In this document: positions 24,404 through 34,533 of the stretch, one piece after another
How the letters are laid out: each line of letters opens with the position of its first letter
How positions within the stretch are numbered: the first letter of the stretch is position 1
Origin: Myxococcota bacterium
Lineage (GTDB): Bacteria > Myxococcota_A > UBA9160 > JAFDET01
DNA length: 34,533 nucleotides
Direction: 5' to 3'
Assembly: GCA_028278065.1 (NCBI GenBank)
Contig: JANQFA010000189.1
Location: 1 to 34,533 of the forward strand
The notes under the pieces: model-generated
Database searches by the model: none
Told to the model about the DNA's origin: nothing
The model's input: only the letters and a program-made list of their open reading frames with translations
Made by a program: the position numbers and the translations under genes

Positions 24404-25321
24404 GTGCTGCAGCGGATCACCGATCTCTTTCCGCTCTGGGCGATCCTGTTCTCGGGCGCGGCCTGGTGGTGGCCGGACGCCTTCACACCGCTGCGGCCGG
24501 CCATCGTTCCGCTGCTCGGCGTGATCATGTTCGGCATGGGCATCACCCTCGCTCCGTCGGACTTCGCGGCGGTGACGCGGCGTCCCGCGGTGCTGGGGCT
24601 GGGCGCGGCCCTGCAGTTCGGAGCGATGCCGCTGGCCGGTCTCGCGGTGGCCCGGATCCTCGGGCTCGATCCCGAGCTCACCGCGGGTCTCGTGCTGGTG
24701 GGGAGCTGTCCGGGTGGGACCGCCTCCAACGTGATCTGCTACCTGGCTCGCGCGGACGTGGCGCTCTCGATCACGCTGACCGCGGTCTCCACCGTCGTGG
24801 CGGTCTTCGCCACGCCTCTGCTCACCGATCTCTACATCGGGCGCGCGATCGAAGTGGACGTGGGCGGCATGATCCTCTCGATCTTCCGCATCGTACTGCT
24901 TCCGGTCGCGCTCGGTGTCGCCGTGCACGCGTGGCTGGGCGAGCGGCTGGCTCCCGTCGAGCGGGTGTTTCCCCTGATCTCGGTGGCGGCCATCTGTGTG
25001 ATCATCGCGATCGTGCTCGCTCTCTCCCACAGCCGGCTGGGCGCGCTCGGTGCCGCGGTGGTCCTCGCGGTGGCCCTGCACAATGCCCTGGGCCTCGCGA
25101 CCGGCTATCTCGTGCCCCGCCTGCTGCGTCTTCCCGAGGCCGTGTGCCGCACTCTCGCCATCGAGGTGGGCATGCAGAACTCCGGCCTCGGGGTCGCGCT
25201 CGCCGTGCAGTACTTCTCGGCGGCCGCGGCCCTTCCCGGAGCGCTCTTCTCGATCTGGCACAATCTCTCGGGCTCCCTGGTCGCCCACTGGTGGTCGCGG
25301 CGCAGGCCCGTGCCATACTGA
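24404..25321 (+). CDS. Bile acid:sodium symporter (BASS) family transporter
   Basis: 305 residues, GTG 24404. About nine to ten membrane segments. The BASS signatures are present: IMFGMGITLAPSDF, GSCPGGTASNVICYLARADVALSITLT (sodium/substrate site crossover) and EVGMQNSGLGVALA. Bacterial members import bile-acid-like steroids, pantoate or other organic anions with Na+. The specific cargo is unknown. It is separated by 21 bases from the mini-secretin and by four from the hemerythrin-like gene, so the three are likely co-transcribed. Confidence 0.95.
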   Translation: MLQRITDLFPLWAILFSGAAWWWPDAFTPLRPAIVPLLGVIMFGMGITLAPSDFAAVTRRPAVLGLGAALQFGAMPLAGLAVARILGLDPELTAGLVLVGSCPGGTASNVICYLARADVALSITLTAVSTVVAVFATPLLTDLYIGRAIEVDVGGMILSIFRIVLLPVALGVAVHAWLGERLAPVERVFPLISVAAICVIIAIVLALSHSRLGALGAAVVLAVALHNALGLATGYLVPRLLRLPEAVCRTLAIEVGMQNSGLGVALAVQYFSAAAALPGALFSIWHNLSGSLVAHWWSRRRPVPY

Positions 25322-25902: not shown

Positions 25903-26814
25903 TCAGGGAGACTCGGGGTCCGGCGACACGGTCCAGCCACGGCGGGCGAGCAGGCTCGGGAGGGAGTCCGGACCGACGGTGTGGGCCGCGCCGACCACGA
26001 CGAAGCGCGTGCGTCCGTCGCGCGCGAGCCGGAGCAGGCGCTCGGCCATGCGGTGGTTGCGTTGCCGGAAGATCGCGTCGTAGAGCGGGGCCATCTCCGG
26101 CCGTTCATCGGAGAAGACCGCATGCGCGAGCCCCGCGCGGTCGCCCCGCCTCCACAGGCTCGCGAACTCCTGGACGGCACCCCCGTCCACCTGGGCCAGC
26201 GCGTCGGAGAGATGCTGCTCCTGGACGGCGAGATCCAGTCCGTCGAACGCGCCGAACTGCTCGTCGAGGGTCTCCAGCGACTCGATGGGCCGCCCCTCGC
26301 GCGCCGCGCGCCGCACCAGCTGCTCCTCGACGCCGTTCTCCGGGTCGAGCCCGGCCTCACGGAGCATCACTTCTTCGACGCTCAGAGCGGCGAACCAGGG
26401 CTTGGCGGGCAGGTAGATCGCGACGGGGATGTCTCGCTGGAGGCAGAAGTCCCTCAGCGCCGCCCAGGTCTCCGGGGAGACGTGATCCGGCAGGGTCCCC
26501 TCGGCGAGCCGGCCGCGTGCGAAGAGCACCTCGGCGGTCTCGCGCGCATCGAGGGAGGTGGCGTCGAGCTCCACCACCAGGGTCTCGCTCTCGCGCCAGT
26601 GTGGCTCCACGGAGACGCCCAGCTCGATCGGCGTGTCGTTGGCGTGGATCGAGCCCAGCACGACCAGCGCGCCGCCTTCGCCCGGAGGGGGCGACGCCTG
26701 CCAGAGGAAGGCGTTGCCGGTCTCGATGGCGTGGTGCGGCCCGCCAGTCGCGCAGGCCGCGAGGAGGCCGGCGGCGACGAGACAGGTCGCGGTCTGCAGC
26801 AGCCTCAGGAGCAC
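25903..26814 (-). CDS. TraB/GumN family lipoprotein (putative metalloprotease-like)
   Basis: 303 residues from GTG 26814, which overlaps the end of the SDR gene by ten bases. Lipoprotein signal with lipobox LLAAC. TraB/GumN/Tiki signatures: VLGSIHANDTP near the N-terminus with the GxxH metal motif, VVELDA, and VVVGAAHTVGPDSLPSLLARRGW near the C-terminus with the second GxxH. Tiki relatives are membrane metalloproteases; bacterial family members are largely uncharacterised. The start is set by the signal peptide, as no other start includes it. Confidence 0.88.
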   Translation of the reverse strand: MLLRLLQTATCLVAAGLLAACATGGPHHAIETGNAFLWQASPPPGEGGALVVLGSIHANDTPIELGVSVEPHWRESETLVVELDATSLDARETAEVLFARGRLAEGTLPDHVSPETWAALRDFCLQRDIPVAIYLPAKPWFAALSVEEVMLREAGLDPENGVEEQLVRRAAREGRPIESLETLDEQFGAFDGLDLAVQEQHLSDALAQVDGGAVQEFASLWRRGDRAGLAHAVFSDERPEMAPLYDAIFRQRNHRMAERLLRLARDGRTRFVVVGAAHTVGPDSLPSLLARRGWTVSPDPESP

Positions 26815-27572
26815 ATGGCCCCGTCGACGCGCACGAACTCCCCGTTCACGTGCGCGGCGTCGTGCGAGGCGAGGAAGGCGATGACGCCGGCGCAGTCCTC
26901 CGGGCCGCGCATGCGGTCGAAGGGCATGATGCGGCGCAGGAGCTTCCGATCTGCGCCCTCCGGAAGCTCGAAGGCGCCATGGATGGGGGTGGTGATGCCT
27001 CCCGCACAGACGCAGTTCGTGCGGATGCCCTGGCGTCCGTACTCGATGGAGAGCTCGACGGTGAGGGCCTGAACGCCCCCCTTGCTGGCCGAGTAGGCTG
27101 CGGCCCAGGGATGCGCCTTGATCGCTGCCGTCGACGACATGTTGACGATGGCGCCCCCGCCGCTCGCGAGGAGGTGGGGGATCGCCGCGCGGCACGCGAG
27201 GAACGTGCCGGTGAGGTTCACGGCCAGCACCCGGTTCCAGGCATCCAGGGTCTCCTCGTGCGTGTGCACGAAGTGGAGGATGCCGGCGCTGTTGACCAGC
27301 ACATCCAGGCCCCCGAGCTCGGCGACCGCGTTTCCCAGGGCCGCTCCCACCTGGTCCTCCTGGGAGACGTCGCACGCCAGGGCGAAGGCCTCGGCCCCGC
27401 GCTCGCGCAGGATCTTCGCCGTCTCCTCGGCGCCCGCCAGCGAGAGGTCGAGGCAGGCGACGCGTGCCCCCTCCGCCGCGAAGCGCTCGCAGGTGGCGCG
27501 CCCGATCCCGGACCCGGCGCCGGTCACCACGGCCCTGCGTCCCTCGAGTCGCTGCATGCCTGTGTCGGCCAC
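26805..27572 (-). CDS. Short-chain dehydrogenase/reductase, 3-oxoacyl-ACP reductase-like
   Basis: 255 residues. GTG 27572 is preferred because TAGGAGGAGC lies directly before it; ATG 27557 would leave that site too far away. Motifs: VTGAGSGIGRAT, CDVSQEDQV, VNSAGILH (NSAG in place of NNAG), NMSSTAAIKA and YSASKGGVQAL with the Tyr-Lys pair. Classical 250-residue SDR using NAD(P)H on a hydroxy or keto group. It sits eight bases after the phosphotransferase gene and overlaps the TraB-like gene, forming a three-gene operon. Confidence 0.94.
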   Translation of the reverse strand: MADTGMQRLEGRRAVVTGAGSGIGRATCERFAAEGARVACLDLSLAGAEETAKILRERGAEAFALACDVSQEDQVGAALGNAVAELGGLDVLVNSAGILHFVHTHEETLDAWNRVLAVNLTGTFLACRAAIPHLLASGGGAIVNMSSTAAIKAHPWAAAYSASKGGVQALTVELSIEYGRQGIRTNCVCAGGITTPIHGAFELPEGADRKLLRRIMPFDRMRGPEDCAGVIAFLASHDAAHVNGEFVRVDGAMCS

Positions 27573-27580
27573 CGCTCCTC

Positions 27581-28657
27581 CTAGAGGGATCCCGGGGCGG
27601 GCAGATCGAGGAGCCTGGCGAGCAGTCGCGAGCAGGCGTTGTCGACCTCGAATCCGGAGTCGGAGGGGAGGACCTCGTAGTAGACCATCTGCCGGGCCAG
27701 GCGCGCCATGATGACCGTGAAGCGCAGGGCCGCGAAAACCTCGTAGTAGTCCAGATGACGGGGCCTGTGTCCCGTGCGCTCGGCGTAGCGCTCGATGGTC
27801 GCTTCCCGGCTGGGGAAGCCCGGCAGACGAGGGGCGTCGACCCCCTCGCTGTGGTGCCGGTCGAGGAAGAGCCACCACGCCAGGTCGAGCTCGGGGCTGC
27901 CGAGCGCCGCCATCTCCCAGTCGAGGACCGCGACGCAGCGCCCGCGGTCGAAGATCATGTTGCCGATGCGCGCGTCTCCCCACGACACGACCGTGGGCTC
28001 CTCGTCCCGGGGGCGGTTCTCGCGCAGCCAGCGCAGGGCGGCCTCGATGTTGGGGTTGGGGCGCCCATCCACCCAGGCCCACATGGACTCGTACTCCTCG
28101 AGATGGGCGTCGAGAGGCGTGGCACCGGGGCGATCGAGGAAGTCGAGACCGAGCCGACGCCAGTCGAGGCGGTGGATCTCGATCAGCGCGTCGAGTCCGC
28201 TCCACCAGAGGGCCTCGCGCTCGTCCGGCGCGATCTCGGTGACCCAGCCGCCGACGTGGTACGGCGGGTTGTCGGTCGGGATGCGTCCGTCCACCCGACC
28301 CATGACGTAGAACGGTGCGCCCAGGAACGACTCGTCGTGCTCGAGCCAGTACATGGGTGCCGATGGGACCGGCGTGTCCGCGAGGATGCGCTGGATCCGG
28401 AACTGCTTCCCGATGTCGTAGACCGGGAAGACGTTGAATCCGCGCGGCTCGATGCGGGCGACCAGCGGGCGCTCGACGCGCGTGCCGGCCTCCTCCCAGG
28501 AGGCGTCGAACAGGATCGTGTCGCTCGAGAAGCCGGTCGTACCCGGACCCGACAGCTCGCCGACCCGGACGTCGGTGGCCTCGGAGAGCCTCCCCGCGAG
28601 CCACCGCTCGAGATCCTTGCGAGTCTGCTCGAGATCGCGCTCCTTGGGGGCAGGCAT
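27581..28657 (-). CDS. Phosphotransferase family protein (APH/ACAD10-like)
   Basis: 358 residues, ATG 28657 with GGAGC upstream. Aminoglycoside-phosphotransferase fold: nucleotide-binding N-lobe (FSSDTILFDASW...RPLVARIEP), catalytic loop SWGDARIGNMIF (225-236) and metal motif VLDWEMAALG (Asp246). The His of the usual HGD is replaced by Trp-preceded Ser, as often in this branch. Related proteins accompany acyl-CoA dehydrogenases and are linked to phosphorylation of 4-hydroxy acids, so a catabolic role rather than antibiotic resistance is more likely here. Confidence 0.93.
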   Translation of the reverse strand: MPAPKERDLEQTRKDLERWLAGRLSEATDVRVGELSGPGTTGFSSDTILFDASWEEAGTRVERPLVARIEPRGFNVFPVYDIGKQFRIQRILADTPVPSAPMYWLEHDESFLGAPFYVMGRVDGRIPTDNPPYHVGGWVTEIAPDEREALWWSGLDALIEIHRLDWRRLGLDFLDRPGATPLDAHLEEYESMWAWVDGRPNPNIEAALRWLRENRPRDEEPTVVSWGDARIGNMIFDRGRCVAVLDWEMAALGSPELDLAWWLFLDRHHSEGVDAPRLPGFPSREATIERYAERTGHRPRHLDYYEVFAALRFTVIMARLARQMVYYEVLPSDSGFEVDNACSRLLARLLDLPAPGSL

Positions 28658-28722
28658 GCGGGCTCCGCTGGGAGAGGAGCACGCGGCCTGGCGCGCTCCC
28701 TGGGAGGGGAGCACGCAGCTTA
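28658..28722. repeat. 33-bp tandem duplication directly upstream of the phosphotransferase start
   Basis: GCGGGCTCCGCTGGGAGAGG (28658) and GCGCGCTCCCTGGGAGGGG (28691) followed by AGCACGC in both. On the minus strand it duplicates the ribosome-binding region, giving two GGAGC-like sites before the ATG. Confidence 0.7.
28717..28722 (-). promoter_or_regulatory. Candidate -10 element TAAGCT
   Basis: Same hexamer as upstream of the SnoaL-like gene; here it lies at the distal edge of the duplicated leader, about 60 bases before ATG 28657. Confidence 0.3.
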
Positions 28723-28747: not shown

Positions 28748-29917
28748 CTAGAGCCGAGACGGGACCTCGAGGGCGTAGAGCTCGACGCAGTTGTCGTGGA
28801 GCATCCGCCTGACGAGGTCGGCGGGAACTCCGCGGAACACGCGCTCCAGGGTGATGCGCGAGTTGGGCCAGTCGGAGCCGCTGTGCGGGTAGTCGGTGGA
28901 CCACATGAGGTGGTCGACGTTCATCCGGTGCAGGAGGTCCATTCCCACCGTGTCCACCATGAACGTGGCCCAGAAGTTGCGGTGGAAGATCTCGCTCGGC
29001 GTGCGCTTCATCTGCTCGTGGGCGCCGGTGTACCAGCGATAGCGCATGAACATGTCGTCGGCCTGCTCGAGGAGCGTGGGGATCCAGCCGATGTTGGACT
29101 CCACGAGCACGATGCGGACGTTCGGGAAGCGCTCGTAGATGCCCGAGAAGAGGACCTCGCACACCGCGGGGAGGGTCTGACCGCCCGCCTTGGTGAGCGC
29201 GGCCGCGCCCACGAAGCCGAGGCCCGTCCAGTTGCGGCTCTTCGGAACCACGCTCTTCTCGACGAAGCTCCCGATGTGGATCGCCACCGGGAAGGCCGAT
29301 TCCTCCACCAGCCCCCAGAAGGCGTCGTCCTCGGGAGAGGTCTCGAGGCTGCCATTGGGGAAGGACGAGATCACTGCGCCCTTGTGCCCGTGCTCCAGCG
29401 CCCAGCGCACCTCGCCCACCGCGTCGTCGATTCCCGTGGTGGGCACGATCGCCTGCCCGAACAGGCGTCCACCGGAGCCCTCGCAGAACTCGAGGAGCCA
29501 CTCGTTGTAGGCGCGCACGCAGGCGAGCTGGAGCTCGCGCTCCTCCGAGTAGATCTTCGCGCCCTTCAACGTGACGCTCGGATAGAGGAGCTGGGCGTAG
29601 ATGCCGTCCGCGTCCATGTCCGCCAGGCGCGCCTTGGCGTCGAAGCTCCCTGGGCGGATGGTCTCGTAGGTGAACCCGAAGGGCTTGTAGTCGAAGAACG
29701 ACAGACCGGCGACGGTGGTCAGTCCGACGGGCCACTTCTCCTTGCCGTCGTCGAAGACCCAGATGTCACCGCGCTCGCCGGATTCGACCCGGGGTGCGCG
29801 GTTGCGCCACTTCGCGGGCACCCGCTCGAGCCACAGGTCCGGCGGCTCGTTCACGTGCGCGTCCGCGTCGACGATCGGGTAGTCGATGCTGGCGGCGTCC
29901 TGGAAGATCTCGCCCAC
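28748..29917 (-). CDS. Amidohydrolase family (ACMSD-like) metal-dependent hydrolase
   Basis: 389 residues from GTG 29917, chosen because GGAGGAGG precedes it; GTG 29959 would run through an operator. The first metal motif DADAHVNEP is at the N-terminus. IHIGSF and the C-terminal STDYPHSGSDWPNS (catalytic Asp) complete the TIM-barrel site. These proteins belong with 2-amino-3-carboxymuconate semialdehyde decarboxylase and relatives that hydrolyse or decarboxylate aromatic-derived intermediates. Substrate unknown. A perfect palindrome immediately upstream suggests regulation by a TetR-like repressor. Confidence 0.93.
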   Translation of the reverse strand: MGEIFQDAASIDYPIVDADAHVNEPPDLWLERVPAKWRNRAPRVESGERGDIWVFDDGKEKWPVGLTTVAGLSFFDYKPFGFTYETIRPGSFDAKARLADMDADGIYAQLLYPSVTLKGAKIYSEERELQLACVRAYNEWLLEFCEGSGGRLFGQAIVPTTGIDDAVGEVRWALEHGHKGAVISSFPNGSLETSPEDDAFWGLVEESAFPVAIHIGSFVEKSVVPKSRNWTGLGFVGAAALTKAGGQTLPAVCEVLFSGIYERFPNVRIVLVESNIGWIPTLLEQADDMFMRYRWYTGAHEQMKRTPSEIFHRNFWATFMVDTVGMDLLHRMNVDHLMWSTDYPHSGSDWPNSRITLERVFRGVPADLVRRMLHDNCVELYALEVPSRL

Positions 29918-29932
29918 GGCCTCCTCCGATGG

Positions 29933-29951
29933 ATCTGACGGTGCGTCAGAT
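29933..29951. promoter_or_regulatory. Operator candidate ATCTGACG-GTG-CGTCAGAT
   Basis: Perfect 8-bp arms around three bases, 16-34 bases upstream of the amidohydrolase start. A -10-like TATCAT (minus strand, 29950-29955) abuts and overlaps it by two bases, so a bound protein would cover the transcription start. Size and symmetry are typical of TetR-family sites. No regulator gene is nearby in the window. Confidence 0.7.
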
Positions 29952-30002
29952 GATACCACGGTCGCCCTCCCTGGCCGCGGGCGCTCGTCGCGCCCACGGC
30001 CG

Positions 30003-30075
30003 GCTAGGCGAGCGGGGCGAAACGCGGGACCACGTCCGCCTAGGCGAGCGGGGCGAACAGCGGGACCACGACCTC
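30003..30075. repeat. 36-bp duplication of the DUF35 gene's 3' end including its stop
   Basis: On the minus strand the gene's terminal codons for VVPLFAPLA plus TAG are followed, exactly 36 bases on and in frame, by codons for VVPRFAPLA plus TAG. The only CTAG tetramer outside true stops and promoter-like elements is in this second copy (30003). Confidence 0.85.
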
Positions 30076-30465
30076 CGGGCCGTCTCCGAAGCGGAGCGGC
30101 TCGAAGACGGCGCGCACCGGCTGGTCGATGGCCAGCTCCTCGGGGCTGCAGTGGACGAAGGTCGTGACCAGGCGCACGTCCCGATCCTCCTCCAGGGCGA
30201 CCAGGCCGGTGGCGTAGGGGACGCGGTCCGCGAACGGCTTCCAGAGCGCGCGGCGTACCACCGCGAACGAGAAGACCGTGCCCCGACCCGACAGCGTGTT
30301 CCACGCGAGCGCGTCCGCGTCGCAGGCCGGGCAGCGTGGGCGGGGATACCAGACCAGGACGCCGCAGGCGCGGCAGCGGGGGATGCGCAGCTCGCGTCTG
30401 GCGGCGCCCTCGAAGAAGGGCCGCGTGATCTCGAGCGTGGGGTCGGGAAGGGGAGAGGCGCTCAT
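30040..30465 (-). CDS. DUF35 OB-fold/zinc-ribbon protein, thiolase partner
   Basis: 141 residues, ATG 30465 overlapping the thiolase stop (ATGA). The N-terminal helix (ITRPFFEGAARRELRIPRC) is followed by a C4 zinc ribbon (CRAC...CPAC) and an OB-fold (GTVFSFAVVRRALWKPF...LVTTFV). DUF35 proteins bind SCP2-type thiolases and help bind acyl-CoA. In steroid side-chain degradation the related ChsH2 domain pairs with the aldolase Ltp2. Stand-alone here. Followed by a duplicate of its own 3' end. Confidence 0.94.
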   Translation of the reverse strand: MSASPLPDPTLEITRPFFEGAARRELRIPRCRACGVLVWYPRPRCPACDADALAWNTLSGRGTVFSFAVVRRALWKPFADRVPYATGLVALEEDRDVRLVTTFVHCSPEELAIDQPVRAVFEPLRFGDGPEVVVPLFAPLA

Positions 30466-31670
30466 GCGTCGCCCTCCAGGACCAGTGTGCTGGCCAGGTG
30501 GCCCGTGTACCCCCCGTAGACGCCGACCCGGGCGCCCGCTACCTGGCACGCGGCCTCGCCGCGCAGCTGGCGCACCACCTCGACCACGTGGGAGATCCCG
30601 AGCACGTACGCGTGGGAGAGCAGACCGCCGTGGGTGTTGAAGGGCAGGCCGCCGCCGTCGAAGTGGAGGTGATCTCCGACCACGAAGCTGCCGCCCTCGC
30701 CCTTGGGGCAGAAGCCCATGTCCTCGATCTGCATGAGCGCCACGATGGTGAAGGGGTCGTAGAGGGTGAGCACGTCCACGTCTTCGGGCTCGATTCCGGC
30801 CATGCGGAAGGCGGCCGGCGCCGAGAACACCTGGGGCGTCGAGGTGAAGTTGCGCTGCTGGCTCCAGTAGGTGCCCGCCTCGGAGCGTCCTTCGCCGATT
30901 CCGGATACCCAGACCGGCGGCTTGCGCAGGTCGCGGGCCCGCTCCGGGCAGGTCATGACGTAGGCCGCGCCGCCGTCCGAGATGAGACAGCAGTCCTCCA
31001 CCCGCAGGGGGTCCACGAGCATGGGGCGCGCCAGATACTCGTCCAGGGTGAGCGGCTTGTTGCGCATGACCGCCCCGGGATGGCTGTTGGCGTGGCGCCG
31101 GCAGGCGACGGCGATGGCGCCCAGGTGGTGGGGCGAGGTGCCGTACTCGTGCATGTGACGCCGGGCGATCGTGGCGAAGTAGACCGGCTGGGGGAACCAG
31201 CCGAAGGGAAGCTCGAGCTGGGCCTTGAAGGGCTCGCGAGCGTGGAACTCGCCGGGTCCGCCGCGCATCGCGTCGCGCTGGGAGGCCCAGGCGACCGCGA
31301 AGGTGTTGATGACCACGTTCGCGTCGCCCCCGGCCAGGGCCTGGGCGGCCCGATAGGGGGCGGTGGCGGCCCAGGCCATGCCCCCCCCTTCGCCGGAGAT
31401 CCAGAGATCGTGGCGGGTCCCGAAGTGGGCGTGGAACTGCTCGGCGGTGAGCTGGTCGTCGAGACCGCCGCTCGTCATCAGACCGTCCACGTCGGCGGGC
31501 TCGAGACCGCAGTCCTGCAGCGCCCGCTCGACGGCCTGGAGGGCGATCGCGTCGGCGCTGCGTCCCGAGGCTCGCGTGTGGTCGGCCTCGCCCACCCCCA
31601 CGATGGCGACCCGGTGGGACACGTCGTCCAGCTCGCGGGCGCTGCCCCAATCTGCGTCCGGCCCGGTCAT
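30462..31670 (-). CDS. SCP2-type thiolase lacking the acylated cysteine
   Basis: 402 residues from ATG 31670; a TTG at 31679 is possible but the -10-like TAGACT favours the ATG. Thiolase fold: RVAIVGVGEADHT, DVDGLMTSG, YDPFTIVALMQIEDMGF, FNTHGGLLSHAYVLG. The nucleophilic Cys segment reads WISGEGGGMAWAA, with glycine instead of Cys around residues 94-97. The usual C-terminal GHP is altered to SHAY. These changes, and the coupled DUF35 gene, recall the Ltp2-type retro-aldolases of steroid degradation. Ordinary thiolytic activity is unlikely. Confidence 0.93.
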   Translation of the reverse strand: MTGPDADWGSARELDDVSHRVAIVGVGEADHTRASGRSADAIALQAVERALQDCGLEPADVDGLMTSGGLDDQLTAEQFHAHFGTRHDLWISGEGGGMAWAATAPYRAAQALAGGDANVVINTFAVAWASQRDAMRGGPGEFHAREPFKAQLELPFGWFPQPVYFATIARRHMHEYGTSPHHLGAIAVACRRHANSHPGAVMRNKPLTLDEYLARPMLVDPLRVEDCCLISDGGAAYVMTCPERARDLRKPPVWVSGIGEGRSEAGTYWSQQRNFTSTPQVFSAPAAFRMAGIEPEDVDVLTLYDPFTIVALMQIEDMGFCPKGEGGSFVVGDHLHFDGGGLPFNTHGGLLSHAYVLGISHVVEVVRQLRGEAACQVAGARVGVYGGYTGHLASTLVLEGDA

Positions 31671-31678
31671 CTCCGCCA

Positions 31679-31684
31679 AGTCTA
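31679..31684 (-). promoter_or_regulatory. Candidate -10 element TAGACT, leaderless
   Basis: Ends eight bases before ATG 31670 of the thiolase, in the 55-base spacer to the PIG-L gene; contains CTAG. Confidence 0.45.
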
Positions 31685-31725: not shown

Positions 31726-32472
31726 CTAGAGAAGCTCGGGCAGCAGGTTCACGTGGAACGCGCCCGGCGAGAGGATGCGCAGCGCCTCTCCGTGACTGAA
31801 CGTCTCCGCGGCCGCCCAGCGCTGCTCGATCCCCGAGAGACCCGCCCGCAGTCCCGCGATCTCCTGCTCGGTGAGCTGGGTCCGGTACGCGCCGATCGCC
31901 TCGTGCTTGCGGGTGCGGCTCGCCGTGACGTCGAAGCACGCGTTCGGCTCCGACGTGAAGTAGAAGCCCACCGCGGCGATGGAGTGGGGCGTCCAGCCGG
32001 CATCCACCTCGGGATCGATCCTCAGGCGCACGTGCTTGTGGAGCAGGCACGCCTCGGCGGTGGCCCGTCCCACGCGCAGGTGGTCGCTGTGCGCCTCGAA
32101 GGGCAGCCACGGGTCCACACTGAACACCACTTCCGGGGACAGCATGCGGATGTGGCGGATGATCCCGTTGCGCAGGGCGTAGTAGTCGTAGGGGCCGGCG
32201 TCGGGGAGCCCGAGCCAGTGCTGGCCCGCGACGCCGAGGATCGCGCCGGCTTCGTGCTGCTCGGCTCGGAGCCGGCGGGTGGCCTCGTCGTCGGCGAGCT
32301 CCGGGTCCAGGACACCGACCAGGTCGTCGGTGGCGGTGAGGTAGTGCACCTCGACCCCCCTGTCGGCCAACGCCGCCACGGTTCCGCCCATGCCGAGGTC
32401 GTTGTCGTCGTAGTGGGGCTGGACGCACAGGACGCGCCGCGCGGCATGCAGTGCCGCGAGCCGGTCGTTCAT
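31726..32472 (-). CDS. PIG-L/LmbE family zinc deacetylase
   Basis: 248 residues, ATG 32472 overlapping the thioredoxin gene's TGA (ATGA). The metal motif PHYDDNDLGMGGT is a variant of the family's PHPDDE, keeping His and Asp-Asp. The distal ligand is in AHSDHLRVGR. Relatives deacetylate N-acetylglucosaminyl groups (GPI precursors, mycothiol, bacillithiol). GlcNAc-type substrate is inferred by family only. Tight coupling to a thioredoxin-like protein hints at thiol metabolism, without proof. Confidence 0.92.
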   Translation of the reverse strand: MNDRLAALHAARRVLCVQPHYDDNDLGMGGTVAALADRGVEVHYLTATDDLVGVLDPELADDEATRRLRAEQHEAGAILGVAGQHWLGLPDAGPYDYYALRNGIIRHIRMLSPEVVFSVDPWLPFEAHSDHLRVGRATAEACLLHKHVRLRIDPEVDAGWTPHSIAAVGFYFTSEPNACFDVTASRTRKHEAIGAYRTQLTEQEIAGLRAGLSGIEQRWAAAETFSHGEALRILSPGAFHVNLLPELL

Positions 32473-33329
32473 GCGAAGAGCACCCGGGAGAGCTCGCGTC
32501 GGAAGCGCTGAGTGGCCTCGTGCTCGCCGCCCAGCACCTCGAAGAGGTCCAGCATCGCCTTGCGCGCCGCCCCCTCCTCGAACTCGGGATCGCGGCGCAC
32601 CGCCTCGAGCAGCGTCTCGAGCGCCTCTTCGTGACGGCCTGCAGCCGCCAGGGCGCGACCCAGCTCGATCCGCGCCGGCAGGTCGTCGGGGTCCGCAGCC
32701 AGCTTCGCGCGGAGCGAATCCGGATCCGCATCGGACTCGGAGGCCAGCCGCAGCTCCGCCGCGAACTGCCCGGCCTCCTCGTAGACGACCTCGTGGGGGA
32801 GGATGTGATCCAGGCGATCGAGGGCGGTCGCCACCTCGCCGCGTGCCGCCAGGGCCCGCGCCAGTCCCAGGAGCGCGCGGCCGTGGCGCGGCTCCAGGGC
32901 GAGCGCCTCTCGCCAGGCGTCCTCCGCGCCGGTCGCGTCTCCCGCTGCGAAGCGCTCCTGGGCCGTGTCGGTCCAGCGGTCCGCCTCGCTGGGCAGCACG
33001 GCCTGCAGGAACTCGCGGACGGCGGGCTCGGGCTGGGCGCCCACGAACTCGGCGCGGATCGCCCCGTCGCGGAATCCCAGCACGGTGGGGATGCTGCGCA
33101 CTCCCAGCCGGGAAGCCAGCGTCTGAGCCCGGTCGACGTCCACCTTCGCCAGCACGAAGGCACCCGCGTGCTCCTCCGCGAGCCGTTCGAGCAGCGGGCC
33201 CAGGGTCTTGCAGGGTCCGCACCACGGCGCCCAGAAGTCCACCACGACGGGAACGCTGCGGGAGCGCTCGACGACGTCGCGCTGGAAGTCGCTCTCCGCG
33301 ACGTCGACGATCCGGGAAGACGGTTCCAT
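32469..33329 (-). CDS. Thioredoxin-TPR co-chaperone, CnoX/YbbN-like
   Basis: 286 residues, ATG 33329 after CGGAGC. Thioredoxin domain 1-110 with the intact redox site WCGPC (Cys37, Cys40) and the cis-Pro loop VRSIPTV. The C-terminal half consists of TPR-like helical hairpins (DATGAEDAWREALALEPRHGRALLGLARAL... and HEEALETLLEAVRRDPEFEE). CnoX holds oxidised clients for GroEL and DnaK. It is 12 bases after the upstream thiolase and coupled to the PIG-L gene, giving a three-gene operon. Confidence 0.95.
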   Translation of the reverse strand: MEPSSRIVDVAESDFQRDVVERSRSVPVVVDFWAPWCGPCKTLGPLLERLAEEHAGAFVLAKVDVDRAQTLASRLGVRSIPTVLGFRDGAIRAEFVGAQPEPAVREFLQAVLPSEADRWTDTAQERFAAGDATGAEDAWREALALEPRHGRALLGLARALAARGEVATALDRLDHILPHEVVYEEAGQFAAELRLASESDADPDSLRAKLAADPDDLPARIELGRALAAAGRHEEALETLLEAVRRDPEFEEGAARKAMLDLFEVLGGEHEATQRFRRELSRVLFA

Positions 33330-33341
33330 GCGGCGCTCCGC

Positions 33342-34533
33342 TCAGCTCGGCGTGAAGAGGTTCTGGCCGTCCGCGAAGCGCACCCGGCCCGCGCGTCCCA
33401 CGCCTTCGTGCTCGACCAGGGCTTCGAGCAGGTCGCGGTCGGCGGGCGTGTGGGCGAGGAAGCGCTCGCCCGTCGCGAGCCGTCCCACGACGATGCTCCG
33501 GTCGGGCGCTCCCTCGCGGTCGTAGACGACGGTGTAGGTCTCGATCTCGCCGGCGCCCTCGGCTTCGTCCAGCACGGTGACGGCGGTCCCGGGAGGCAGC
33601 TCCGGTGCCCGGACGTCCGCGCGGGCCGGGCCGGGCTCGTTCGAGAGGACCGTGGCGGTGTGCTTGGTGAAGTACCAGCCCAGGCCGGTGACGAGCCCGT
33701 TTCCGCCGTGTTCGCGGACCCGGTCGACCATGGTGGCTGCGGAGTGCAGCGTGTAGCTGTTGCCGGGTCCGCCCGCGTAGGGGAGCCCGCCCGTCACGGT
33801 GAAGCCACGCGGGTCCTCCGGGTCGAGTCCGGTCATCTCGAGCGCCATGCCGACCGCGGACGGGAAGCAGCTGTAGAAGTCGAAGTGGTCGATCCCGGAG
33901 AGGTCGAGTCCGGCCGCTCCCAGGGCTCCGGCGGTCGCTGCCGCCAGCGCCGGACACGAATGGAAGTCGCTGCGCTCGGTCGCGTACCACACCCGCTCGT
34001 GCATCGCGGCGCCGCCGCGCCAGTGCACCAGGCGGTCGTCGGCGATGCCGAGCTCCCGCGCGGTGCCGGCGGAGGTCACGATCAGGGCGGCGGCCTGGTC
34101 CGTCATCATCACCGCGTTCATGTACTTGGGGTAGGGCGATGCGACCATGCGGTTGTCCGGCCCCGGCGTGGCGATCTCCGCCGGAGTGCGGAACGTCGGG
34201 TACCACGCGTGCGGGTTCTTCGCGGCCACCTCGGTGAAGCGGCTCATCAGCCGTCCGAGCGCCTGGCTGTGCTCGACGGGCGAAGTGCCGCGACGCGCGC
34301 GCAGTGCGTTCTCGTAGAGCGGGTATATGAAGATCGGCAGCTGGAGGCCGTAGGCCTGCTCGCGCTCGGACGTGCCCCAGCGGTCCTCGACGAGCCGTTC
34401 CGGCTCTCCCTCGCCGCCCGCTCGCCAGTCGAGCCGCACCTTCTCCTTGCGCGCACGCGCGAGAGTCGCCATGTGGTTGCTGCCGGCCACCAGGCCCACG
34501 CGCACGTCGCCGCCTGCGACCGCCTCCGCCATC
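33342..34533 (-). CDS. Thiolase-like protein type 1 with C-terminal extra domain, 5' end cut by window edge
   Basis: At least 396 residues visible; the frame is open to the edge, and the Met at 34532 is probably internal. Thiolase core: VRVGLVAGSNHMATLARARKE, FDFYSCFPSAVGMAL, and VTGGLPYAGGPGNSYTLHS in place of the NxxGG-GHP element. The last about 100 residues form the beta-rich additional domain of SCP2-thiolase-like protein 1 (PGTAVTVLDE...ETYTVVYDREG...GERFLAHTPAD). Annotated relatives are 'acetyl-CoA acetyltransferases', but the true reaction is unknown. The nucleophile region is outside the window. Confidence 0.92.
   Translation of the reverse strand, partial: MAEAVAGGDVRVGLVAGSNHMATLARARKEKVRLDWRAGGEGEPERLVEDRWGTSEREQAYGLQLPIFIYPLYENALRARRGTSPVEHSQALGRLMSRFTEVAAKNPHAWYPTFRTPAEIATPGPDNRMVASPYPKYMNAVMMTDQAAALIVTSAGTARELGIADDRLVHWRGGAAMHERVWYATERSDFHSCPALAAATAGALGAAGLDLSGIDHFDFYSCFPSAVGMALEMTGLDPEDPRGFTVTGGLPYAGGPGNSYTLHSAATMVDRVREHGGNGLVTGLGWYFTKHTATVLSNEPGPARADVRAPELPPGTAVTVLDEAEGAGEIETYTVVYDREGAPDRSIVVGRLATGERFLAHTPADRDLLEALVEHEGVGRAGRVRFADGQNLFTPS

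What the first reader, a model, noticed from the sequence alone, without database searches (positions are those of the whole stretch)
30040..31670. Thiolase without nucleophilic Cys coupled to a stand-alone DUF35 protein
The Cys segment is GEGGGMAW and the GHP element is altered, while the partner DUF35 gene overlaps by ATGA. This matches the logic of Ltp2-DUF35 retro-aldolases rather than thiolysis, and suggests side-chain cleavage of a steroid- or terpenoid-like acyl-CoA. A BASS transporter, crotonase and SDRs lie within 10 kb.
Basis: partly seen in the sequence, partly recalled or inferred. Interest (0 to 1): 0.5.

Follow-up and report, generated by a model that had tools for sequence, protein, structure and literature searches.

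The report
Thiolase-like aldolase with DUF35 partner
A pair of overlapping bacterial genes looks like a two-part enzyme that splits a carbon-carbon bond in a CoA-bound acid by a reverse aldol reaction; it belongs to an uncharacterised clade related to the steroid side-chain aldolases Ltp2 and Sal and often sits beside CoA-loading enzymes and oxygenases rather than the usual hydratase.

Summary
Observation confirmed. Window 30465-31670 (-) encodes a thiolase-fold protein without the nucleophilic Cys; 30040-30465 (-) encodes a stand-alone DUF35 protein starting in an ATGA overlap. Both catalytic tyrosines of TcLtp2 are present (Y304, Y355), and so is the oxyanion-hole Gln of CtSal (Q161); the His/Cys of YDHF/YDCY is Pro. 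Y304 is in 64 of 64 family rows, Y355 and Q161 in 63 of 63 that cover them. The family is its own clade: nesting with SCP2 thiolases is rejected (AU p 2e-5), and so is one clade with Ltp2 (p 0.016); the same genome has separate Ltp2-clade paralogs. Best fold matches are Ltp2-ChsH2(DUF35), Sal and 4u4e. So the retro-aldolase reading is well supported as 'works like Ltp2/Sal', but this is no Ltp2 ortholog. New: the neighbours are CoA-transferases or ligases and, in part of the loci, oxygenase-type genes of several kinds (in the window a PtmU3/DitZ-like amidohydrolase), rarely hydratase or dehydrogenase genes, which suggests 'activate, hydroxylate, retro-aldol'. Substrate unproven; the BASS neighbour is PanS-like. 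New variant of a known kind.

The parts
30465..31670 (-). Thiolase-fold aldolase-like protein, 402 aa (ATG 31670; stop 30462-30464; a TTG at 31679 is an alternative start)
30040..30465 (-). Stand-alone DUF35 protein, 141 aa: zf-ChsH2 zinc ribbon (C31, C34, C45, C48) + OB_ChsH2_C; ATGA overlap with the aldolase
31383..31388 (-). Codons of G95-G96, where Cys-dependent thiolases have the nucleophilic Cys segment
   Evidence: alignment; G in 63 of 63 rows covering it
31188..31190 (-). Codon of Q161, aligned with the CtSal oxyanion-hole Gln161 (TcLtp2 has Pro)
   Evidence: 63 of 63 rows covering it; one search seed contained this residue, so partly selected for; invariant in the 11 rows of A1, which were found by score
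30759..30761 (-). Codon of Y304 (YDPF), aligned with TcLtp2 Tyr294 / CtSal Tyr302, the catalytic base
   Evidence: 64 of 64 rows
30606..30608 (-). Codon of Y355 (LSHAYVLG), aligned with TcLtp2 Tyr344, the catalytic acid; takes the place of the GHP His
   Evidence: 63 of 63 rows covering it
28748..29959 (-). Amidohydrolase-superfamily protein (Amidohydro_2), closest solved relatives PtmU3 and DitZ; start uncertain (ORF open to 30304)
27584..28714 (-). APH-family (phosphotransferase) protein, next gene on the same strand; membership in the unit uncertain
26805..27563 (-). SDR oxidoreductase, next gene on the same strand; membership in the unit uncertain

Best explanation
The pair encodes a two-component acyl-CoA retro-aldolase: the thiolase-fold subunit binds a 3-hydroxyacyl-CoA and cleaves C2-C3, and the zinc-ribbon/OB (DUF35) subunit binds it and shapes the substrate cleft. 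Proposed steps: Y304 takes the proton from the 3-hydroxyl, the C-C bond breaks to a carbonyl plus an acyl-CoA enolate, Q161 (and a backbone amide) holds the thioester oxyanion, and Y355 protonates the enolate. It would use the Ltp2 Tyr-Tyr pair with the Sal-type oxyanion Gln instead of the Ltp2 His. Shown here: the sequence features, their conservation, the phylogeny, the predicted fold and the gene pairing. Inferred: activity, complex formation, roles of residues. Further inference, less certain: the 3-hydroxyl is put on by a neighbouring oxygenase (in the window the PtmU3/DitZ-like amidohydrolase) rather than by a MaoC hydratase, on a bulky, possibly isoprenoid, acyl-CoA that ordinary beta-oxidation cannot handle.
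For: Closest solved relatives by sequence are 4u4e (205.7 bits) and TcLtp2 6ok1 (203.5), then CtSal 9myr (145.7); Cys thiolases score lower: 7yvy 133, BbsB 105, SCP2 93. The DUF35 protein's best matches are the Sal and Ltp2 partners 9myr_B and 6ok1_B. TcLtp2 Tyr294 (base) and Tyr344 (acid), and CtSal Tyr302 and Gln161, are the published catalytic or oxyanion residues (PMC12329534: passages, and part 1 of 2 of the Discussion); they align with Y304, Y355 and Q161. Y304 64 of 64, Y355 63 of 63; the two search seeds LMQIEDM and PFGWFPQP contain neither. Tree: YDxF superclade (64 rows, SH-aLRT 100) apart from Cys thiolases. The AYx---xG deletion is shared with Ltp2. Model pLDDT 89.2; Foldseek ranks 6ok1, 9myr, 4u4e first; VIA Z 48.1, 45.1, 45.4 against 40.4 for SCP2 thiolase and about 31.6 for classical thiolases. 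DUF35 directly downstream in 58 of 63 loci scored. Activation/oxygenase context.
Against: No activity, substrate or complex was shown. The third motif residue is Pro (55 of 64 rows) or Cys (9 of 64), never the Ltp2 His; in CtSal the residue at this place, Cys304, is essential. One clade with Ltp2 is rejected (p 0.016) and the exact sister could not be fixed: one clade with CtSal is not rejected (p 0.113), nor is a basal position on the branch towards the Cys thiolases (unrooted split, p 0.198). The archaeal Cys thiolase 6esq (Z 43.3) is not far below the aldolases in overall fold. Oxygenase link: the window's amidohydrolase has the six metal-ligand residues but Gly where two-metal members have Asp/Glu; its model is poor (pLDDT 67.1); this gene family was found intact and on the same strand in only 12 of 63 other family loci, and in many loci I identified no oxygenase gene. 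Characterised two-domain class III CoA-transferases (PtmU4, DddD) do more than load CoA (PMC6006322, passages), so the activating role is itself uncertain.
Confidence: 0.72

Rival explanations
1. A true Ltp2: the steroid C17 side-chain aldolase acting after ChsE/ChsH dehydrogenation and hydration.
For: Second-best PDB match is Ltp2 and both Ltp2 tyrosines are present.
Against: Separate clade; one clade with Ltp2 rejected at p 0.016. Among 102 same-strand neighbour ORFs only 2 match acyl-CoA dehydrogenase, and no MaoC or FAS1_DH family is among the 25 of 50 Pfam families shown (single-member families may be hidden), whereas dehydratase-DUF35 fusions stand near the control Ltp2 genes in 4 of 6 loci. 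A protein over the cut-off of NF005892 is in 7 of 8 named genomes that also hold the family. The window genome has Ltp2-clade paralogs on C114, C208 and C210, the last beside a dehydratase-DUF35 fusion. A stand-alone DUF35 alone does not separate the two: the Ltp2-clade gene on C114 and the control Ltp2 in L152 also have one.
Confidence: 0.07
2. A thiolase-fold acyltransferase or carbon-carbon ligase working in the synthetic (aldol/Claisen) direction, as PhlC or thiolase/HMG-CoA synthase partners of DUF35 proteins do.
For: DUF35 proteins also pair with PhlABC and the archaeal thiolase/HMG-CoA synthase (matches; discussed in PMC12329534). Aldol reactions are reversible.
Against: No Cys for acyl transfer; among the closest relatives in tree and fold are the Tyr-based retro-aldolases; neighbours look catabolic (CoA-transferase/ligase, oxygenase types).
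Confidence: 0.1
3. A Cys-dependent or BbsAB-like thiolase that cleaves a 3-ketoacyl-CoA with another nucleophile.
For: BbsB also has a small zinc-finger partner; the neighbouring two-domain CoA-transferase matches both subunits of benzylsuccinate CoA-transferase (9fn0_A and 9fn0_B), which recalls toluene pathways.
Against: BbsB keeps the Cys, HDAF and GHP; the window protein has none of them. Family nested with SCP2 thiolases rejected, p 2e-5.
Confidence: 0.04
4. The conserved amidohydrolase neighbour is a hydrolase or decarboxylase, not an oxygenase, and the 3-hydroxyl comes from elsewhere; the pair is still an aldolase.
For: Gly at the acidic position that marks two-metal members (PMC7782822 Discussion; alignments). 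Mononuclear ACMSD-type enzymes are also matched. The adjacent genes identified (DUF35, APH) are not redox partners.
Against: All six two-metal ligand residues are kept in the window protein and its five close relatives, and PtmU3 and DitZ are the best matches by a wide margin (143 and 131 bits; next 49).
Confidence: 0.4
5. A non-catalytic lipid-transfer-like protein.
For: Several NCBIfam models that match are named 'lipid-transfer protein'.
Against: The catalytic residues are invariant over the 63-64 rows that cover them, from several groups of bacteria; Ltp2 and Sal are enzymes despite such names.
Confidence: 0.05

Closest known systems
TcLtp2-ChsH2(DUF35) steroid aldolase (PDB 6ok1)
   Same: No nucleophilic Cys; Tyr base in YDxF; Tyr acid at the GHP position; three-residue deletion after it; DUF35 partner; best fold match.
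   Different: YDPF instead of YDHF; Gln161 instead of Pro; one clade rejected (p 0.016); DUF35 stand-alone, whereas that of TcLtp2 is a domain of the hydratase ChsH2; dehydrogenase and hydratase genes rare among neighbours.
CtSal-CtShy(DUF35) bile acid aldolase (PDB 9myr)
   Same: Tyr base; oxyanion Gln161; Gly in place of the Cys; its DUF35 partner is the best match of the window's DUF35.
   Different: Sal uses Cys304 as acid and has Gln352; the window has Pro306 and Tyr355. Nine family rows (Haliea-type) have both Cys and Tyr.
4u4e, putative thiolase of Sphaerobacter thermophilus
   Same: YDxF, no Cys; highest phmmer score.
   Different: Keeps THP at the GHP position; no function was found for it here.
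Benzoylsuccinyl-CoA thiolase BbsAB (PDB 7pxp)
   Same: Thiolase fold; BbsA model weakly matches the window's DUF35 (22.7 bits).
   Different: BbsB has Cys, HDAF and GHP.
PtmU3 and DitZ (PDB 6omp, 8uyr), for the neighbour gene
   Same: Best matches of the conserved amidohydrolase; six metal ligands aligned. PtmU3 is described as a beta-hydroxylase of diterpenoid biosynthesis that accepts CoA-linked substrates (PMC7782822, passages and Discussion).
   Different: The acidic residue (Glu313 in PtmU3, Asp in DitZ) is Gly.

Membership tests
Ltp2 steroid aldolases | No nucleophilic Cys | tested here: met
   Gly at the position
Ltp2 steroid aldolases | Tyr base (Tyr294) in YDxF | tested here: met
   Y304; 64 of 64 rows
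Ltp2 steroid aldolases | Tyr acid (Tyr344) | tested here: met
   Y355; 63 of 63 rows covering it
Ltp2 steroid aldolases | His296 of YDHF | tested here: not met
   Pro306 (Pro in 55, Cys in 9 of 64 family rows); note that some rows of the Ltp2 clade also lack it (YDAF, YENF, YDAY)
Ltp2 steroid aldolases | One clade with Ltp2 | tested here: not met
   Own clade; one clade with the Ltp2 rows rejected, p 0.016
Ltp2 steroid aldolases | DUF35 that is a domain of a dehydratase-type protein, with acyl-CoA dehydrogenase nearby | tested here: not met
   Stand-alone DUF35; neighbour census; control (fusion in 4 of 6 Ltp2 loci, so the feature is not universal there either)
Ltp2 steroid aldolases | Stable complex with DUF35 and activity on steroid-CoA | not testable with these tools
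   gene pairing only
Sal bile acid aldolases | Cys304 of YDCY | tested here: not met
   Pro306
Sal bile acid aldolases | Oxyanion Gln161 | tested here: met
   Q161 aligned without gaps from the P(F/Y)G anchor
Sal bile acid aldolases | One clade with Sal | tested here: inconclusive
   AU p 0.113 with a single Sal sequence
Cys-dependent thiolases (SCP2, BbsB, archaeal) | Nucleophilic Cys, HDxF, GHP | tested here: not met
Amidohydrolase-related dinuclear oxygenases (neighbour gene) | Six metal ligands D,H,H,E,D,H | tested here: met
   window and five relatives; 11 of 12 rows (the twelfth, L060, is broken by a frame change)
Amidohydrolase-related dinuclear oxygenases (neighbour gene) | Acidic residue at PtmU3 Glu313 / AibH2 Asp342 | tested here: not met
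   Gly in the window and its five relatives, with an Asp two residues on; Gly, Ser or Thr in the other unbroken members; only the out-of-frame piece in L060 shows Asp there

The most novel reading that the evidence does not exclude
A widespread catabolic module in which a carboxylic acid is loaded on CoA (two-domain class III CoA-transferase or acyl-CoA ligase), hydroxylated at C3 by an exchangeable oxygenase (PtmU3-like metal enzyme, KshA-like Rieske enzyme or TauD-type dioxygenase in different lineages), and split by this third, hybrid-active-site class of DUF35-dependent aldolase: an O2-dependent bypass of beta-oxidation for bulky or blocked isoprenoid acids.
Probability: 0.3. Interest if true: 0.72.

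Novelty: new variant of a known kind. Interest (0 to 1): 0.5.

Why it matters
In the papers read here only two DUF35-dependent thiolase-fold aldolases, Ltp2 and Sal, are characterised, with different acids and oxyanion holes. This family carries a third combination (Tyr base, Tyr acid, Sal-type Gln), and a subclade holds both the Sal-type Cys and the Ltp2-type Tyr, so it bears directly on how the two active sites evolved. Its partners suggest that the 3-hydroxyl may come from O2 instead of a hydratase. Named strains hold it (Parahaliea mediterranea, Planobispora longispora, Actinomadura kijaniata, Sphingomonas formosensis), so tests are practical.

Tried and rejected
Led nowhere or rejected: (1) Bile-acid transport context: the BASS gene is PanS-like. 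(2) Cluster 6 amidohydrolases, in 8 loci, as a second metal oxygenase: their residues at the ARO ligand positions do not fit, dropped. (3) Plasmid relatives: 244 records, all under 60% identity, best listed 42.6%. (4) Literature for this family or module: searches gave no description of it in the titles and abstract starts listed; only open-licence PMC papers are covered and the lists were cut at 20. The DOI I had for the PtmU3 paper is not held, nor is the DOI that I recalled for the TcLtp2 paper; the link of PtmU3 to C-5 hydroxylation before A-ring cleavage is recalled, not read. (5) The AU test 'family + Cys thiolases' (p 0.198) is an unrooted split that equals a basal place in the YDxF clade, so it neither supports nor refutes thiolase membership; the nested test is. 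(6) The amidohydrolase model is too weak (pLDDT 67.1) for structural claims. (7) Rows left out before counts: L102 and L103 (34% identity, YDSF, another group) from all family counts; L096 (cut by the contig end) from the DUF35 count; L062, L096, L097, own_C250 and seven repeats of family members from the tree set; the tree used 75 of the 122 rows (27 family-labelled rows including L102 and L103, 8 of 19 sister rows, and the references; ref_L144, a repeat of L087, was left in); the AU set used 60 of those 75 (long branches and close repeats out). In one search five loci failed the DUF35 pattern (L057, L069, L076, L077, L089); clustering had placed a DUF35-like ORF beside three of them (L076, L077, L089). 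(8) Neighbour ORFs come from my own GC-based caller, so some are spurious, merged or have wrong starts; ORFs with inner stops or a long overlap with the aldolase were dropped, so undercounts (for instance the amidohydrolases of L044 and L091). (9) Loci and are in part the same places (equal contig lengths), so they are not independent samples.
Full report
WHAT IS THERE. On the minus strand the window encodes a 402-aa protein (30465-31670) and a 141-aa protein (30040-30465) whose ATG overlaps the stop of the first as ATGA. Pfam gives Thiolase_C_1 for the first and zf-ChsH2 plus OB_ChsH2_C for the second. The window is the whole of contig C259 of a 5.35-Mb genome given as 90.5% complete.

ACTIVE SITE. 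In a 60-row alignment (again) the catalytic positions of Cys thiolases read here: nucleophilic Cys -> Gly; His of HDxF -> Tyr304; His of GHP -> Tyr355, with three residues missing after it. TcLtp2 shows the same pattern. PMC12329534 (passages, and part 1 of 2 of the Discussion) gives Tyr294 as base and Tyr344 as acid in TcLtp2, His296 as part of its oxyanion hole (14-fold effect when replaced), and Tyr302, Cys304 and Gln161 as base, acid and oxyanion-hole residue in CtSal. The window has the Ltp2 Tyr pair, Pro in place of His296/Cys304, and Gln161 aligned with the Sal Gln; TcLtp2 has Pro there, and in the 60 rows outside the family only CtSal and ref_L146, a paralog that branches next to the family, have Gln. 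Of 64 rows (window and 63 of the 65 loci; L102 and L103 left out) Y304 is in 64 of 64, Y355 and Q161 in 63 of 63 that cover them; position 306 is Pro in 55 and Cys in 9. The loci were found with the seeds LMQIEDM and PFGWFPQP, so Q161 is partly selected for; it is, however, invariant in the 11 orthologs found by score.

PHYLOGENY AND FOLD. A 75-row tree (quick search) puts the YDxF-type proteins (Ltp2, Sal, 4u4e, a sister family with YDCF/SEAH, and this family; 64 rows) on one side of a branch with SH-aLRT 100 from the Cys thiolases; this family is its own clade (26 rows, 99). AU tests on 60 rows: family nested with SCP2 thiolases rejected (p 2e-5); one clade with Ltp2 rejected (p 0.016); one clade with CtSal not rejected (p 0.113); an unrooted split equal to a basal place not rejected (p 0.198). 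The AlphaFold model (44 sequences, pLDDT 89.2) matches 6ok1 (Ltp2-ChsH2 DUF35), 9myr (Sal-Shy DUF35) and 4u4e first in Foldseek; VIA Z is 48.1, 45.1 and 45.4, against 43.3 for an archaeal Cys thiolase, 40.4 for SCP2 thiolase and about 31.6 for classical thiolases. Coordinates are not exposed, so the Tyr-Tyr geometry was not measured.

NOT AN LTP2 ORTHOLOG. Of eight named genomes that hold the family, seven also hold a protein over the cut-off of model NF005892; all nine such proteins fall with TcLtp2 in an 11-row clade. Six of these loci were fetched with flanks; 10 of 23 neighbour ORFs listed were scanned: dehydratase (FAS1_DH_region) plus DUF35 fusions in four of the six loci (L147, L149, L150, L151), MaoC genes in L149 and L150, an acyl-CoA dehydrogenase in L149; L152 has a stand-alone DUF35, and the one ORF scanned in L148 was unrelated. 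The window genome has Ltp2-clade paralogs on C114 (YDHF, EAYIHG; 277 bits to 6ok1; with a stand-alone DUF35), C208 and C210, the last beside a dehydratase-DUF35 fusion. So the window pair is an additional system, although a stand-alone DUF35 by itself does not mark it. In the order it is patchy: 16 of 79 genomes (own included), one match each, and none in the two same-genus relatives searched.

NEIGHBOURHOOD. Genes were called with my own GC-based caller and clustered. In the 63 family loci outside the window, a two-domain class III CoA-transferase cluster is in 26, same strand and adjacent in 18. The halves of a representative match the two subunits of benzylsuccinate CoA-transferase; the window genome has homologs at 51-52% on C114 and C198, not in the window. 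Two-domain members characterised so far, PtmU4 and DddD, do more than transfer CoA (PMC6006322, passages), so their role here is open. A Pfam census of 102 same-strand ORFs within 1.6 kb gives CoA_transf_3 22, AMP-binding 11, Amidohydro_2 7, SDR 5, Aldolase_II 4, TauD 3, Rieske 2, acyl-CoA dehydrogenase 2, crotonase 2; no MaoC or FAS1_DH family is among the 25 of 50 families shown (single-member families may be hidden). In ten loci, Haliea-type and Sphingomonas, a Rieske oxygenase cluster is present; in six of them (L085, L089, L092, L093, L094, L104) it precedes an acyl-CoA ligase, then the aldolase and DUF35, and in L087 it directly precedes the aldolase. Its best solved match is 3-ketosteroid 9alpha-hydroxylase KshA (113.7 bits). 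TauD-family genes sit next to the pair in L088, L092 and L094. In Planobispora longispora (L099) a luciferase-like monooxygenase, the amidohydrolase, a CoA-transferase and the aldolase follow one another with a 6-base gap or 4-base overlaps, then DUF35; Actinomadura kijaniata (L095) shows the same order of types. Halieaceae are reported to include cholesterol degraders (PMC5790920, passages).

THE AMIDOHYDROLASE. It is next to the aldolase-DUF35 pair in the window and in five of the ten relatives fetched (several of the other contigs end nearby). Clustering found it in 11 of 63 family loci, adjacent downstream in 8; a motif scan for unbroken same-strand copies gives 12 of 63 (adding L067 and L095 and dropping L060, which has a frame change). 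Its best solved matches are PtmU3 (143 bits) and DitZ (131), the next 49. PtmU3 is described as a beta-hydroxylase of diterpenoid biosynthesis with a two-iron centre that accepts CoA-linked substrates (PMC7782822, passages and Discussion); such enzymes are grouped as dinuclear oxygenases in PMC10811679 (passages and part 1 of 2 of section 2). All six ligands are present in the window protein and its five close relatives, but the extra acidic residue that PMC7782822 ties to two-metal sites is Gly. So an oxygenase role is plausible and unproven.

MECHANISM. Most likely a DUF35-dependent retro-aldolase of a 3-hydroxyacyl-CoA: Y304 base, Y355 acid, Q161 with a backbone amide as oxyanion hole (confidence 0.72). 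Shown: residues, conservation, phylogeny, predicted fold, gene pairing. Inferred: activity, complex, residue roles. The substrate and the source of the 3-hydroxyl are open; an O2-dependent hydroxylation before the cleavage is the most novel reading that the evidence allows (0.3).

VERDICT. New variant of a known kind, interest 0.5.

Noticed in passing
window 33342-34533: A second thiolase-like protein (TLP1 type, PF18313; best NCBIfam matches in the PRK08257 group), running into the contig end.
   Followed up: no
window genome, contigs C114, C208, C210, C33, C44, C267: Ltp2-clade aldolase paralogs, C210 beside a dehydratase-DUF35 fusion, and three KshA_C hits: the genome may degrade steroids.
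   Followed up: partly
L013-L031: Sister family in the same order with YDCF plus EAH or QAH at the GHP place and its own downstream DUF35; no function was found for it here.
   Followed up: partly
L085, L088, L089, L090, L092, L093, L094, L104, L106: Subclade with YDCF and HAY/HSY: both the Sal-type Cys and the Ltp2-type Tyr in one active site.
   Followed up: partly
L087 7191-7619 and L089 7199-7618: DUF35 partners that have lost zinc-ligand cysteines (sequence starts).
   Followed up: no
window 24404-25321: SBF/BASS protein that is PanS-like, i.e. a pantoate/pantothenate-type transporter.
   Followed up: yes
window 32469-33329: Thioredoxin-TPR protein resembling CnoX/YbbN (name recalled), between the TLP1 gene and a PIG-L deacetylase (31726-32454).
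   Followed up: no
L045 5287-6450, L095 near 2667, L099 2886-4058: Divergent members of the amidohydrolase family with DFPHPT instead of DYPHSG.
   Followed up: no
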